Of a stretch of DNA of 32,103 nucleotides, positions 7,067 to 13,932 are shown piece by piece. The notes beneath the pieces are model-generated. The model saw nothing but the letters and a program-made list of their open reading frames with translations, searched no databases and was not told the DNA's origin. The position numbers were made by a program, and so were the translations under genes. Source of the stretch: Phycisphaerae bacterium. GTDB lineage: Bacteria > Planctomycetota > Phycisphaerae > Sedimentisphaerales > Anaerobacaceae. How positions within the stretch are numbered: the first letter of the stretch is position 1; every line of letters starts with the position of its first letter. The stretch is taken from positions 1-32,103 of the forward strand of contig JADHXY010000008.1 in assembly GCA_016782755.1 (NCBI GenBank), given 5' to 3'.

Positions 7067-8401
7067 ATGATCGGTTGTCATACAGGAAGATGTTTTCAGG
7101 TCACCGTTGCCGGCGGTTCTTACCAGGACGGTTTGTCCACAATAATACAAGGCAATCCGCCCGGAATGGAAATACTCGAACAGGAAATTTACGGCGACAT
7201 GCTCTTGAGAAAACCCGGTGCCGATGAGCTTTCCAGCCCGAGAAAAGAGCCGGACCTGCCAATAATTTATTCCGGAATAAACGCTGCTGATACCGTCGAA
7301 GGTGCCGGCAACAAAAACCATACAAACGGCACTCCGCTTACTATCCTGATCCCAAACCTTGACCGTCACTTCATACACATAAAACAGTATCAGGACACAA
7401 ACAGAACCCCTCGACCCGGACACGCCTCATACGCCTCATTCCTCAAATACGGCCCAAATGACGATGCTATCGGAGCCGGAATGTTCAGCGGAAGATATAC
7501 TTCCACAATAGTCGCAGCCGGCTACGTCGCAAAAAAGGTACTGCGAAAACTCGGAATAAATGTTTTCTCATACGTAAAAGAAGCTGCCGGCGTTAAATGC
7601 CCCCAAATGGACCCCTCAACAATCTTCGACTGCACACAACGCTATAAACAAATGCGATGCGATCATGACCCATTCTATCAGCAGATTTATGTCAGCGGAA
7701 GAATCAATCCCGAGATGAGGTTCTTAGAAAAGGCCAGAATCTTCGCCGAGATCGAAGGACAGATAGATGAAATACGCGACAAAGCTCCAAAAATGGATGA
7801 AAATCAAATCGCGGAAAAATACGGCGTGCATCACATCCTCTGCTGTCCCGACCTCCAGGCCGCAAAAGAAATGGTAAAGACCTGCAACGCAATCACAAAA
7901 ACCGGAGACTCATCAGGAGGTGTTGTCGAAATAATGGTAACTGGCACCCCCGTTGGACTCGGCGAGCCTGTATTCAGCAAACTCGATGCGGAACTTGGGA
8001 AAATGCTTGGAATCGGAGCCATAAAAGCAGTAGAAGTCGGAGCCGGTGTTGCCGTCAAAGACATGACCGGCCACCAATGCAATGACCAGATGAGAAGCCA
8101 GGACGGAAAAGTCATATTCGACTCCAACAATGCCGGCGGAATTACCGGCGGACTTTCTACCGGCCAGGATATAATTTGCAGGGTAACCGTAAAACCAACT
8201 CCTACAATAGACAAGGATCAGCACACGATAGACAAATACACGAAAGAAAACAAAGCCCTTTCAGCAATAACCAGGCGAGACCCTACAATCGTCGGACGCA
8301 TCTGGCCGGTCGCCGAAAACTACACAGCCATGGTTATCCTCGACAACCTCATGGGCCATTACGGCTACCAGACCATAAAAGATAAATACAACCAGAAGTA
8401 A
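7067..8401 (+). CDS. aroC: Chorismate synthase, divergent (GESHG motif replaced)
   Basis: Chorismate synthase converts EPSP to chorismate with reduced FMN. Order and length of conserved blocks fit: PPGMEILEQE near 31, PRKEPDLPIIYSG near 58, PRPGHASYASFLKYG at 115-129, DSSGGVVEIMVTG followed by LGEPVFSKLDAELGKM, the NNAGGITGGLSTGQDI block, KPTPTIDKDQHTID, and RRDPTIVGRIWPVAE. Yet the N-terminal signature GESHG reads GGSYQ (16-20), so the first invariant His is Tyr19. The RSSARE segment reads FSGRYT (140-145). The second catalytic His is kept as His119. At 444 residues it is longer than the usual 350-400. AGGAG precedes the ATG at a good distance, and aroA lies 24 bases upstream. This context argues for a real shikimate enzyme rather than a stray paralogue. 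A terminator follows. Confidence 0.88.
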   Translation: MIGCHTGRCFQVTVAGGSYQDGLSTIIQGNPPGMEILEQEIYGDMLLRKPGADELSSPRKEPDLPIIYSGINAADTVEGAGNKNHTNGTPLTILIPNLDRHFIHIKQYQDTNRTPRPGHASYASFLKYGPNDDAIGAGMFSGRYTSTIVAAGYVAKKVLRKLGINVFSYVKEAAGVKCPQMDPSTIFDCTQRYKQMRCDHDPFYQQIYVSGRINPEMRFLEKARIFAEIEGQIDEIRDKAPKMDENQIAEKYGVHHILCCPDLQAAKEMVKTCNAITKTGDSSGGVVEIMVTGTPVGLGEPVFSKLDAELGKMLGIGAIKAVEVGAGVAVKDMTGHQCNDQMRSQDGKVIFDSNNAGGITGGLSTGQDIICRVTVKPTPTIDKDQHTIDKYTKENKALSAITRRDPTIVGRIWPVAENYTAMVILDNLMGHYGYQTIKDKYNQK

Positions 8402-10227: not shown

Positions 10228-12000
10228 ATGGCTTGTATTAAGGTCCTCGATCAGAATATGATTAACATGATCGCTGCAGGTGAGGTGATCGAACGGCCTG
10301 CAAGTGTAGTTAAGGAGCTAATCGAAAACAGCATCGACTCGGGTGCAGACAAAATAGTCGTCAACATCGAAGAGGGAGGACGAAAACTCATTTCCGTTAC
10401 CGATAACGGCTGCGGCATGGATACCGAAGACCTGCGATTAGCCTTCGAGCCTCATGCAACAAGCAAAATAAATAGCTCTGCCGACCTCAGCACCATTTCA
10501 ACATTAGGCTTCAGAGGCGAAGCCCTTGCCAGCATCAGTTCCATCGCTCAGCTAACAGCAACCAGCAGAACAAAAAACTCCCTCCAGGCAAATTCCGTTT
10601 CGATCGATTGCGGACAAAACAAAAACCTCTGCCCAGCTAGTGCAGATTACGGCACAAAAATACAGGTAAGAGATATTTTCTATAAGCTGCCGGCAAGGCA
10701 AAAATTCCTCAAATCCGCAAATACCGAAATGAACCACATCACAGAATGTTTTAAGAGAATTGCCCTGGCAAACCCAAATATAAACTTGACACTTATCCAT
10801 AACAAAAAAGAAATCTATAACCTCCACTCCGGCGATGGCTTAAAAAACAGGATACGCTCGCTTTTCGGCAATTCAGTCGCCGAAGGCCTCATCGAAACTT
10901 CCAGCCACGAAAAAAACGTTAACATAAAAGCTTTCCTCGGAAGACCGGAAATATCTAAAACAAATAAAAACACACAGTACTTCTTCCTCAACGGCAGGTT
11001 CATCAAAGACAAATTCATCTCCCACGCACTCAATGAAGCATACAGAAGCCAGCTTGAACCCAACAGGCACCCTGCAGCATTCGTTTTCATCGAACTACCG
11101 CCAGATGATTTCGATGTAAACGTCCACCCCACAAAAATCGAAGTTCGTTTTTACAATTCAAATCTCATTCACTCGCTTCTGCTCAGCACAATAAGACAAA
11201 AACTGCTCTCGACAAATATGGACGTATCTTTCAAAACCTCACCAGAAAACTTCGAAAGAAAACAGCATATAAAAGATGCGATGGAAGACTTCTTCAAAAA
11301 AAACCGCCCCGCTGCCCATCAACAGAACATGCCTTTCAGCTCGTACACAAAAAACTCTGCCAATAAACCGCAATTTGACAGCCGCAATTTCACCGCACCC
11401 TCGATGCCTGAATCCAGTCAATCCGTTGCCCCGAAAAATTTCATCCAGATACACAACAGCTACATCGTCTCACAAAATGACAACGGCTTTGTCATCATAG
11501 ATCAGCACGCACTGCATGAAAGAATAATCTATGAAAAGCTAAAAAAACGAGTTAGCAAAAACTCCCTCGAATCACAAAAACAACTCGTTCCCGAAACAGT
11601 TGAACTCACGCAACCACAAGCTGAAAATCTAAATAAGAACCTTGATATCTTCGAAAAACTCGGAATCCAGATCGAACCCTTCGGACCAAACACATACGCA
11701 ATACACTCTTTCCCTCTATTACTCACCAAAGCAGACCCCGCCGATTTCGTAATAGACCTCATAGACATCCTCGACTCGAAACTCTCAGGCACAAACTCTG
11801 ACCAGTTGCTTGACGAAATCTTAAACATGGCAGCATGCAAAGCCGCCATAAAAGCAGGCCAGAAATTAACTGATGATGAAATTCAACATCTGCTCGACCA
11901 GAAAGAAAAGACCGATTACTCAAGCAGATGCCCGCACGGAAGACCAACCACAATAACTTTTTCTATTCCCGAACTTGAAAAGCAATTCAAAAGAACCTGA
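10228..12000 (+). CDS. mutL: DNA mismatch repair protein MutL (endonuclease type)
   Basis: MutL couples MutS mismatch recognition to strand incision. The ATG at 10228 matches the usual family start (short leader, then IKVLD); a TTG at 10216 is also in frame, and neither has a strong ribosome site. The GHKL ATPase domain shows Glu30 and Asn34 in VVKELIENSIDSGA, DNGCGM at 59-64, TSKI near 78 and GFRGEALASISS from 94. The transducer domain carries VNVHPTKIEVRF. The C-terminal domain has the metal-binding endonuclease motif DQHA-x2-E-x4-E at 425-436 and CPHGRPT near the end, so this MutL is expected to nick DNA itself, as in organisms without MutH. About 80 residues in the middle are a polar linker. 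Its TGA overlaps the next ATG by one base, coupling it to the importer genes. Confidence 0.95.
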   Translation: MACIKVLDQNMINMIAAGEVIERPASVVKELIENSIDSGADKIVVNIEEGGRKLISVTDNGCGMDTEDLRLAFEPHATSKINSSADLSTISTLGFRGEALASISSIAQLTATSRTKNSLQANSVSIDCGQNKNLCPASADYGTKIQVRDIFYKLPARQKFLKSANTEMNHITECFKRIALANPNINLTLIHNKKEIYNLHSGDGLKNRIRSLFGNSVAEGLIETSSHEKNVNIKAFLGRPEISKTNKNTQYFFLNGRFIKDKFISHALNEAYRSQLEPNRHPAAFVFIELPPDDFDVNVHPTKIEVRFYNSNLIHSLLLSTIRQKLLSTNMDVSFKTSPENFERKQHIKDAMEDFFKKNRPAAHQQNMPFSSYTKNSANKPQFDSRNFTAPSMPESSQSVAPKNFIQIHNSYIVSQNDNGFVIIDQHALHERIIYEKLKKRVSKNSLESQKQLVPETVELTQPQAENLNKNLDIFEKLGIQIEPFGPNTYAIHSFPLLLTKADPADFVIDLIDILDSKLSGTNSDQLLDEILNMAACKAAIKAGQKLTDDEIQHLLDQKEKTDYSSRCPHGRPTTITFSIPELEKQFKRT

Positions 12001-12893
12001 TGAAAAAATGGCTGATACTATTTGCTTTATTACTCTGCTGGATAATTACTGCCTTTGTAATTTATAACAACCAGCAAACAAACATAACACAATCCCAAAC
12101 AAAACAATTCAGCCCACAGAGAATCGTTTCCCTTGCACCGAATCTGACCGACATCCTCTTTGAACTCGGAATCGGCGAAAAAATCGTTGCCGTCCCGACT
12201 TCAGCAAAAAACCTACACAAATATTCAGACAAAAATCAAATAGGCAATTTCTGGCAGCCGGACATAGAAGCAATTATCGCAAGCAAACCCGACCTCGTCA
12301 TAACCCTCAGTTTCTCCCAACAGCAGCTCATAGCCGACCGCCTCAAAAAGATCGGCTGCAACTGTCTGACTGTTAAAATACAATCAATCGATCAACTTTT
12401 CGATGCGATAAATCTAATCGGCAAAACCATAAACAAACAAAACGAGTCCACCGAGCTAATAAAAAAAATAAAACTCAGCCTATCCCGGATTTCCGATAAA
12501 ATCAAAAACAAAACAAAACCAAAAACCCTTTACGTCGTCCAGCAGCAGCCACTCCGCATAGCCGGAACCGACACATTCATAAACGATATGATCGAAAAAG
12601 CCGGCGGAACCAATGCTATCGGCACCACAATTTACAAATACCCCCCTATCGCAACAGAACAATTGATTGCAAGCCAGCCGGAGGTTATAATCATCCCCGC
12701 AATGGGCAACGAAAATTTAGCGGCTGTAAAAAAACAAGCTCTCCAATTTTGGAGCCGTTACGAAACATTGCCAGCCGTCAAAAACAAAAGGATTTACGTA
12801 ATAAACGACAATACCGTCTCCCAGCTTGGCCCGTCGATCCACAAGGGAGTCGAATTGATATACCAATGCTTATGGGAAGAAAGCTACCAATAA
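12000..12893 (+). CDS. btuF: ABC transporter substrate-binding protein, BtuF/FecB-like
   Basis: This 297-residue protein has an N-terminal hydrophobic segment (MKKWLILFALLLCWIITAFV), either an uncleaved anchor or a signal peptide. Cys13 follows Leu-Leu-Leu, which is a poor lipobox. The rest is a two-lobed TroA-like binding domain: RIVSLAPNLTDILFELGIG at the front is the hallmark of BtuF/FhuD/FecB proteins, then NFWQPDIEAIIASKPDLVI and a helical backbone linker near the middle. The family delivers cobalamin, haem or iron-siderophore complexes to a FecCD-type permease. The next two genes encode such a permease and an ATPase, so a complete importer is present. The substrate cannot be read from sequence; the symbol denotes the family only. 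No cobalamin riboswitch is possible upstream, because the start overlaps the mutL stop. Confidence 0.82.
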   Translation: MKKWLILFALLLCWIITAFVIYNNQQTNITQSQTKQFSPQRIVSLAPNLTDILFELGIGEKIVAVPTSAKNLHKYSDKNQIGNFWQPDIEAIIASKPDLVITLSFSQQQLIADRLKKIGCNCLTVKIQSIDQLFDAINLIGKTINKQNESTELIKKIKLSLSRISDKIKNKTKPKTLYVVQQQPLRIAGTDTFINDMIEKAGGTNAIGTTIYKYPPIATEQLIASQPEVIIIPAMGNENLAAVKKQALQFWSRYETLPAVKNKRIYVINDNTVSQLGPSIHKGVELIYQCLWEESYQ

Positions 12894-12894
12894 C

Positions 12895-13932
12895 ATGAAC
12901 CCGGAAATACTAACAGCAAAAAAACTCCTCACAAGGATCATCATCGCCTTGATAATACTCGCCCTCGTCATGCTAACATGCTCAATGATCGGCAGCCAGA
13001 AATTATCTCCTTCTCAGCTGTTAAAAAAATCCGACAATCCCCAATTCACAAACCCTGACCGGCAGATATTTTTCAACATCAGAATACCAAGAATCATACT
13101 CGCAGCCGTCGTCGGAGCCGCCCTCGCTTGTGCAGGAGTCGTTTTTCAGGCACTGCTAAGAAACCCCCTCGCCGACCCTTACATCCTCGGTATTTCCAGC
13201 GGTGCCGGACTCGGTGTCACAATAGCCGTCCTAAGCGGTATAAATTACACCTTCATGACAATGCCCGCAATATCCCTATTCGCATTCATCGGAGCCATCG
13301 CAACTGTCTGGCTCGTATGGTTTATCGCCGGATTTACCGGAAGAAGGCAAGTCACAGCCATGCTGCTCGCCGGCGTTGTAGTAAACGCTTTCTTTTCTGC
13401 CATGATCATGTTCCTCTCCTCAATCGCAAAAAGTCAGCAGCTACAATCTACTATCTTCTGGCTGATGGGCAATATACAAGAACAAAGCTTCGTTGCCCTC
13501 TGGATCATCGCCGGCATCGTATTATTCGGAATTTGCGGACTGTTCCTCATTGCACCCCAGCTCAACATCCTCAGTTTTTCCAACCGCGACGCCCAGACCA
13601 TCGGCATAAACACCACAAAAATCCAGCTAATCGCCTTCGCCATCGCTTCGCTAATCACCGCCATAGCCGTCAGCATAAGCGGCCTCATCGGCTTCGTAGG
13701 CCTTATCATCCCCCACGCCGTCAGACTAACCTTCGGCCCCGACCACCGCCAGCTAATTCCATTAAGCGCAATAATCTCTGCCGCCTTTTTAGTCATCGCA
13801 GACACCTTTGCAAGAACAATAATCGCCCCCGCCCAGCTCCCCGTCGGAATAGTAACTGCCGTAATCGGAGGCCCTTTCTTTTTAATACTCCTCGTAAAAT
13901 ACGCCAGAAAAATAGGGTGGTACAGCAAATGA
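12895..13932 (+). CDS. btuC: FecCD/BtuC-family ABC transporter permease
   Basis: This 345-residue integral membrane protein belongs to the type II importers for metal chelates. It is hydrophobic throughout, with about nine or ten membrane helices. Family segments include the RIPRIILAAVVGAALACAGV stretch (about residues 62-81), FQALLRNPLADPYILGISSGAGLG, ATVWLVWF, the coupling-helix region IGINTTKIQL, and ISGLIGFVGLIIPHAVRL followed by GPDHRQLIPLSAI, then a typical C-terminus with PVGIVTAVIGGPFFLILL. It starts one base after the btuF stop and overlaps the ATPase gene by four bases (ATGA), a tightly coupled arrangement. It should form a homodimer with two ATPase subunits. Cobalamin, haem or ferric siderophore are all possible substrates. 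Confidence 0.9.
   Translation: MNPEILTAKKLLTRIIIALIILALVMLTCSMIGSQKLSPSQLLKKSDNPQFTNPDRQIFFNIRIPRIILAAVVGAALACAGVVFQALLRNPLADPYILGISSGAGLGVTIAVLSGINYTFMTMPAISLFAFIGAIATVWLVWFIAGFTGRRQVTAMLLAGVVVNAFFSAMIMFLSSIAKSQQLQSTIFWLMGNIQEQSFVALWIIAGIVLFGICGLFLIAPQLNILSFSNRDAQTIGINTTKIQLIAFAIASLITAIAVSISGLIGFVGLIIPHAVRLTFGPDHRQLIPLSAIISAAFLVIADTFARTIIAPAQLPVGIVTAVIGGPFFLILLVKYARKIGWYSK

What the first reader, a model, noticed from the sequence alone, without database searches (positions are those of the whole stretch)
7067..8401. Chorismate synthase without the GESHG histidine
The sequence aligns without gaps to AroC, but GESHG reads GGSYQ (Tyr19 for the first catalytic His) and the FMN/substrate segment GGRSSARE reads AGMFSGRY. 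The second His (His119) is kept. Known: the two histidines (Neurospora His17 and His106) are linked to catalysis. The gene sits beside aroA, so it is likely the real enzyme. Either a tyrosine can replace the histidine or this is a distinct AroC subfamily.
Basis: partly seen in the sequence, partly recalled or inferred. Interest (0 to 1): 0.62.

Follow-up and report, generated by a model that had tools for sequence, protein, structure and literature searches.

The report
Chorismate synthase with relocated catalytic histidine
This gene is very probably a real chorismate synthase, the enzyme that makes the precursor of all aromatic amino acids, but it belongs to a branch we found no description of that naturally lacks a histidine textbooks call invariant and carries linked replacement changes, so it offers a natural test of how this unusual enzyme works.

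Summary
Confirmed: window 7067-8401 encodes a 444-aa AroC-family protein in which GESHG reads GGSYQ. It is not a sequencing artefact: about 100 related proteins in Planctomycetota, Fibrobacterota, Lentisphaerota and others are all Tyr19/Gln20. It is the only AroC in its own genome and in 40 of 50 other genomes carrying this type. Near-complete genomes with only this type still hold EPSP synthase, prephenate dehydratase and chorismate-binding enzymes, so it very probably is the working chorismate synthase. I also found a compact sister group (GESY[G/A/S], 11 sequences, Verrucomicrobiota and Planctomycetota). All Tyr-types form one clade (94/88, trait columns left out). In every complete member sampled, His19->Tyr comes with a 3-residue loop insert carrying a new invariant His104, HisAsp->ArgAsp (R404) beside the phosphate-binding arginine, and Asp108->Glu/Ser. 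The FMN-side histidine, active-site arginines and catalytic aspartate are kept. Best reading: a new variant class of chorismate synthase in which the phosphate-side acid moved from His19 to loop His104 and/or Arg404 (relocation inferred, not shown). I found no paper describing it.

The parts
7067..8401 (+). aroC, Tyr-type (GGSYQ) chorismate synthase, 444 aa
   Evidence: PF01264 311 bits (cut-off 27); TIGR00033 aroC 300.7 (cut-off 212.2); model matches chorismate synthase 7rca Z 41.1 and 1qxo Z 37.0
7112..7126 (+). codons for GGSYQ (residues 16-20), in place of GESHG; Tyr19 = His17 of Neurospora, His19 of E. coli
7364..7378 (+). RHFIH (residues 100-104): 3-residue loop insert and invariant His101/His104; His104 also in the compact sister group
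7412..7429 (+). RPGHAS (residues 116-121): substrate Arg116 and FMN-side His119 (His106 of Neurospora, His110 of S. pneumoniae) kept; Asp->Ser121
   Evidence: roles from PMC3509576 and PMC11633415
7475..7498 (+). AGMFSGRY (residues 137-144): Ser141 (=Ser127) and Arg143 (=Arg129) kept, Arg125->Met, Glu130->Tyr
7604..7831 (+). subfamily-specific, mostly helical insert (about residues 180-255), absent from canonical and compact Tyr-type AroC
8273..8287 (+). RRDPT (residues 403-407): phosphate Arg403 and catalytic Asp405 (=Asp367 of Neurospora) kept, His->Arg404
   Evidence: roles from PMC3509576 and PMC11633415
5762..7042 (+). aroA, EPSP synthase (the preceding pathway step), ends 24 bases before aroC
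   Evidence: TIGR01356 aroA 401.6 bits, cut-off 287; PF00275

Best explanation
It is the organism's working chorismate synthase (EPSP -> chorismate, on reduced FMN) and belongs to a Tyr-type clade of AroC. The flavin and EPSP machinery is conserved. Reduced FMN donates an electron and its N5 takes the C6 hydrogen. His119 protonates the flavin. Asp405 primes N5. Arg48, 116, 143, 403 and 411 hold EPSP. What changed is the side of the pocket where the 3-phosphate leaves. The histidine that normally sits by that phosphate (His17 in Neurospora) is Tyr19. A loop lengthened by three residues supplies a new invariant His104, and an extra arginine (Arg404) sits next to the phosphate-binding Arg403. Most likely His104 and/or Arg404 now neutralise or protonate the leaving phosphate, with Tyr19 at most a hydrogen-bond partner. 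Shown: sequence, clade, co-occurrence of the changes, sole-copy status, genome context. Inferred: activity (about 0.9) and relocation of the acid (about 0.45).
For: Family and fold: PF01264 and TIGR00033 well over cut-off; model pLDDT 91.3, Z 41.1 (rmsd 1.9 over 350 residues) to Candida Aro2p and Z 37.0 to the FMN+EPSP complex 1qxo, next non-CS chain Z 5.0. Catalytic set kept in all sampled Tyr-types: Ser18, Arg48, Arg116, His119, Ser141, Arg143, Arg403, Asp405, Arg411; roles of these positions from PMC3509576, PMC11633415, PMC12697075. Need for it: sole AroC in its own genome, in 40 of 50 genomes with the long type (two of them have two copies) and in the nine Verrucomicrobiota genomes with the compact type. 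All 15 long-type-only relatives tested have EPSP synthase, prephenate dehydratase and a chorismate-binding enzyme; 29 of 30 further Tyr-type genomes have a chorismate-binding enzyme. Context: aroA directly upstream in 43 of 98 long-type loci against 1 of 79 His-type loci in the same samples. Linked change: His104 insert and Arg404 in 30/30 Tyr-types and 0/59 His-types; one clade, support 94/88, with those columns removed.
Against: No activity has been measured. Ten of 50 genomes with the long type also carry a canonical aroC, and in such genomes the long type is next to aroA in only 2 of 12, so there it could be redundant or do something else. The linked changes trace to one origin, so their co-occurrence is not independent evidence of compensation. 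The loop with His104 is the least certain part of the model (pLDDT 62 over residues 101-110) and no coordinates were available, so its distance to the phosphate is unknown. Several other pocket residues differ (Glu17, Arg49, Arg125, Glu130), which leaves room for altered substrate handling.
Confidence: 0.8

Rival explanations
1. It is the working chorismate synthase, but no acid has been relocated: the phosphate-side histidine is simply dispensable, phosphate leaves with help from the arginines, and Tyr19, His104 and Arg404 are lineage-specific structural changes.
For: PMC12697075 says other residues such as arginine cannot be excluded as the proton donor at the EPSP phosphate, and the phosphate arginines are kept. 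All Tyr-types descend from one ancestor, so the linked residues may be hitch-hikers. Position 404 already varies (His or Ser) among His-types.
Against: His104 and Arg404 stay fixed across two Tyr-type subfamilies that differ in much else, including Glu17/Gly, Arg125, Glu130, the large inserts and the residue after Tyr. Neutral changes would be expected to drift.
Confidence: 0.35
2. The long type has left chorismate synthesis and acts on another EPSP-like substrate or branch product; chorismate comes from an enzyme not recognised here.
For: Ten of 50 genomes keep a canonical aroC as well; in those the long type is mostly away from aroA, for example beside cobalamin-like genes in L136. Several conserved pocket residues differ.
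Against: Sole AroC in near-complete genomes with the downstream chorismate users present. All EPSP-contacting arginines are kept. It stands directly behind aroA in nearly half the loci.
Confidence: 0.06
3. A degenerate, inactive paralogue, with the true aroC lying in the missing part of the assembly.
For: The assembly is 84.6% complete in 134 contigs.
Against: 70-80% identity over 440 residues with fixed motifs in about 100 genomes. Near-complete relatives also have only this type.
Confidence: 0.02

Closest known systems
Canonical chorismate synthase (AroC, EC 4.2.3.5; PF01264/TIGR00033; E. coli, Neurospora, PDB 7rca, 5z9a)
   Same: Fold, FMN-side histidine, catalytic aspartate, active-site arginines and serines
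   Different: Phosphate-side GESHG histidine is Tyr; Arg404 in place of the RHD histidine; extra loop His104; Asp108 lost; about 80 inserted residues; 35-39% identity to planctomycete canonical sequences
Bacillus/Streptococcus/Mycobacterium-type chorismate synthase (PDB 1qxo, 2o12)
   Same: Fold (Z 37.0 to 1qxo); related planctomycete sequences also vary at position 404 (RSD in place of RHD)
   Different: Keeps GESHG; 30% identity; no His104 insert in the sequences of this kind sampled
FSGR-type canonical AroC (L009, L186, L188 here; from memory also the clostridial type)
   Same: The 'FSGR[LY]T' segment in place of RSSARET
   Different: Keeps the GxSH histidine and RHDPC; not sister to the Tyr clade in the tree
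Compact Tyr-type AroC found here (L154/L177, L155, L206-L214; 380-400 aa)
   Same: Tyr19, His104 insert, RRDP[TS], Asp108 lost; sister clade
   Different: Keeps Glu17, Arg125, Glu130; lacks the large helical insert; Gly/Ala/Ser in place of Gln20; Glu in place of Ser at the Asp108 position

Membership tests
Chorismate synthase (PF01264 / TIGR00033) | Family profile over curated cut-off along the whole model | tested here: met
   PF01264 311 bits, profile 1-327 of 327; TIGR00033 300.7 against 212.2. PRK05382 just missed: 317.3 against 321
Chorismate synthase (PF01264 / TIGR00033) | Beta-alpha-beta sandwich fold special to chorismate synthases | tested here: met
   Model pLDDT 91.3; 20 listed CS entries at Z 28-41, next unrelated chain Z 5.0
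Chorismate synthase (PF01264 / TIGR00033) | First catalytic histidine of GESHG (Neurospora His17) | tested here: not met
   Tyr19 in the window and in 102/102 close relatives
Chorismate synthase (PF01264 / TIGR00033) | FMN-protonating histidine (Neurospora His106, S. pneumoniae His110) | tested here: met
   His119, invariant
Chorismate synthase (PF01264 / TIGR00033) | Catalytic aspartate (Neurospora Asp367) and EPSP-contacting arginines/serine (R46, R103, R129, R354, R362, S127 in PbCS) | tested here: met
   Asp405; Arg48, 116, 143, 403, 411; Ser141; all invariant in the Tyr-types sampled; mapping via the fungal alignment and the roles
Chorismate synthase (PF01264 / TIGR00033) | Conversion of EPSP to chorismate with reduced FMN | not testable with these tools
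   No assay; only genomic necessity
Chorismate synthase (PF01264 / TIGR00033) | Intrinsic flavin reductase activity (bifunctional type) or not | not testable with these tools
   No sequence marker tested

The most novel reading that the evidence does not exclude
A second catalytic design within chorismate synthases: the acid that handles the leaving phosphate moved from the GESHG histidine to a histidine on an extended active-site loop (His104), helped by an added arginine (Arg404). This happened once, gave a compact and a long subfamily, and the long one spread between phyla, replacing the canonical enzyme.
Probability: 0.45. Interest if true: 0.7.

Novelty: new variant of a known kind. Interest (0 to 1): 0.57.

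Why it matters
Chorismate synthase is described as the most conserved enzyme of its pathway (PMC9137983), with two 'invariant' active-site histidines (title of Kitzing et al. 2004, cited in PMC3509576). A natural clade without one of them, used as the only copy in near-complete genomes, suggests that this histidine is not essential to the chemistry. It also offers a ready comparison for finding what acid, if any, the phosphate needs. It is relevant to inhibitor design against the phosphate side of the pocket and to annotation: profile libraries name it plain chorismate synthase, and motif rules based on GESHG would miss it.

Tried and rejected
Sequencing artefact or pseudogene: rejected. Second canonical aroC in the genome: none found. 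AroC-AroA fusion in L155, suspected from overlapping ORFs: rejected, the genes are adjacent in different frames. Using FSGR as a mark of the new group: rejected, since it occurs in His-type enzymes. Measuring the distance from His104 or Tyr19 to FMN/EPSP in the models: not possible, because no coordinates are in the Python box and the loop is low-confidence. Papers: no match for chorismate synthase with GESHG, with planctomycete and histidine, or with tyrosine plus catalytic histidine; the original histidine and structure papers are not held. The absence is limited to this open-access library. Residue 19 was read only in the loci fetched (about 200 sequences), not in every genome counted.

Full report
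Observation. The ORF at 7067-8401 starts with ATG behind an AGGAG and encodes 444 residues. It matches the chorismate synthase family along its whole length (PF01264 311 bits, cut-off 27; TIGR00033 300.7, cut-off 212.2). GESHG reads GGSYQ (DNA ggcggttcttaccag), RSSARE reads MFSGRY, and the second catalytic histidine is kept as His119. The statement that it aligns without gaps is wrong: it is 83 residues longer than E. coli AroC, with inserts at about 72-81, 101-103, 135, 180-222 and 232-255.

Not an artefact. A search of genome contigs and of relatives gave 102 close relatives, at least 70% identical to this protein among the rows aligned, scoring 735 bits or more against it. Canonical AroC score 213 or less, with nothing in between in that set; two diverged members with GGSYQ found later score 614-628. 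In all 102, Ser18, Tyr19, Gln20 and His119 are fixed; in 34 canonical planctomycete sequences Glu17, Ser18, His19 and Gly20 are fixed. Record titles place the group in Planctomycetota, Fibrobacterota, Lentisphaerota, Spirochaetota, Myxococcota, Omnitrophota, Auribacterota and Raymondbacteria. These are MAGs, so some phylum labels may be binning errors.

It is probably the working enzyme. Its own genome has one AroC. In relatives of high completeness (G034 99%, G035 98%, G015 98%, G025 97%) it is also the only AroC. Of 50 genomes carrying the long type, 40 have no canonical AroC and 10 have one as well. All 15 long-type-only relatives tested have EPSP synthase, prephenate dehydratase and a chorismate-binding enzyme, and 29 of 30 further Tyr-type genomes have a chorismate-binding enzyme. 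In this window aroC follows aroA by 24 bases. The same order is found in 43 of 98 long-type loci but 1 of 79 His-type loci in the same samples, and in only 2 of 12 genomes that have both types.

Fold. The AlphaFold model (pLDDT 91.3) matches solved chorismate synthases far above everything else: Z 41.1 to Candida Aro2p and Z 37.0 to the S. pneumoniae complex with FMN and EPSP. The least certain part is the loop around residues 101-110.

A second Tyr-type group. Two planctomycete proteins (L154, L155) and nine Verrucomicrobiota proteins (L206-L214) read GESYG, GESYA or GESYS and are compact (380-400 aa), without the large insert. Each of the nine Verrucomicrobiota genomes shows a single AroC. 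In a tree with the trait columns removed, the compact and long Tyr-types form one clade (94/88), each subfamily strongly supported (98/93 and 100/100), with a single His->Tyr change.

Linked changes. In 30 of 30 Tyr-types in the tree set, and 0 of 59 His-types, three further features occur: a 3-residue longer loop with an invariant histidine (His104), Arg at the position between the phosphate-binding arginine and the catalytic aspartate (RRD in place of RHD or RSD), and loss of the aspartate of RPGHAD. His104 and Arg404 stay fixed although the two subfamilies differ at Glu17, Arg125, Glu130 and the residue after Tyr. Since there was one origin, the co-occurrence itself does not prove compensation; the continued fixation is what suggests it.

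Mechanism. From published work: the FMN-side histidine protonates flavin N1, the aspartate primes N5, and the reduced flavin donates an electron and serves as base (PMC3509576). In the P. brasiliensis enzyme EPSP contacts R46, R103, R362, with R129 and R354 at the 3-phosphate (PMC11633415). His17 lies near the phosphate and could protonate it (PMC7144000), though other donors such as arginine cannot be excluded (PMC12697075). Mapped by alignment (a step of mine, not of those papers), these are Arg48, Arg116, Arg411, Arg143, Arg403, His119 and Asp405 here, all kept; only the His17 equivalent is gone. I infer that the phosphate-side acid or charge is now given by loop His104 and/or Arg404, which sits next to the phosphate-binding Arg403. 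The plain rival is that the histidine is dispensable and the arginines suffice.

Novelty. Searches of the paper library found no description of such a group, within the limits of that open-access library. It is a member of the chorismate synthase family by profile, fold and most catalytic residues, but fails one feature treated as defining (the GESHG histidine). I therefore call it a new variant of a known kind.

Noticed in passing
L002, L003, L004, L006, L162, L163, L165: In several relatives of the same order the canonical AroC seems fused behind a shikimate kinase domain (about 540-aa ORF beginning KIVITGPKGSGKS); by eye in L002 and L163, by ORF length in the rest. Genomes that hold both AroC types in this order carry this fused form.
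   Followed up: partly
   Followed up: no
G440 and G458: Two genomes carry two copies of the long Tyr-type AroC and no canonical one.
   Followed up: no
L136:1476-5329: In a Fibrobacter MAG with both AroC types the Tyr-type gene stands behind genes resembling cobU, cobT and cobS of cobalamin synthesis (by eye, not scanned).
   Followed up: no
long Tyr-type clade (L057-L136): Members from different phyla are only mildly diverged and intermixed in the tree (for example Fibrobacterota, Omnitrophota and Auribacterota inside a mainly planctomycete clade), pointing to transfer between phyla or MAG binning errors.
   Followed up: partly
window 12000-13932: A periplasmic binding protein and FecCD-type permease (iron-siderophore or B12 uptake type) follow mutL in the same direction.
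   Followed up: partly
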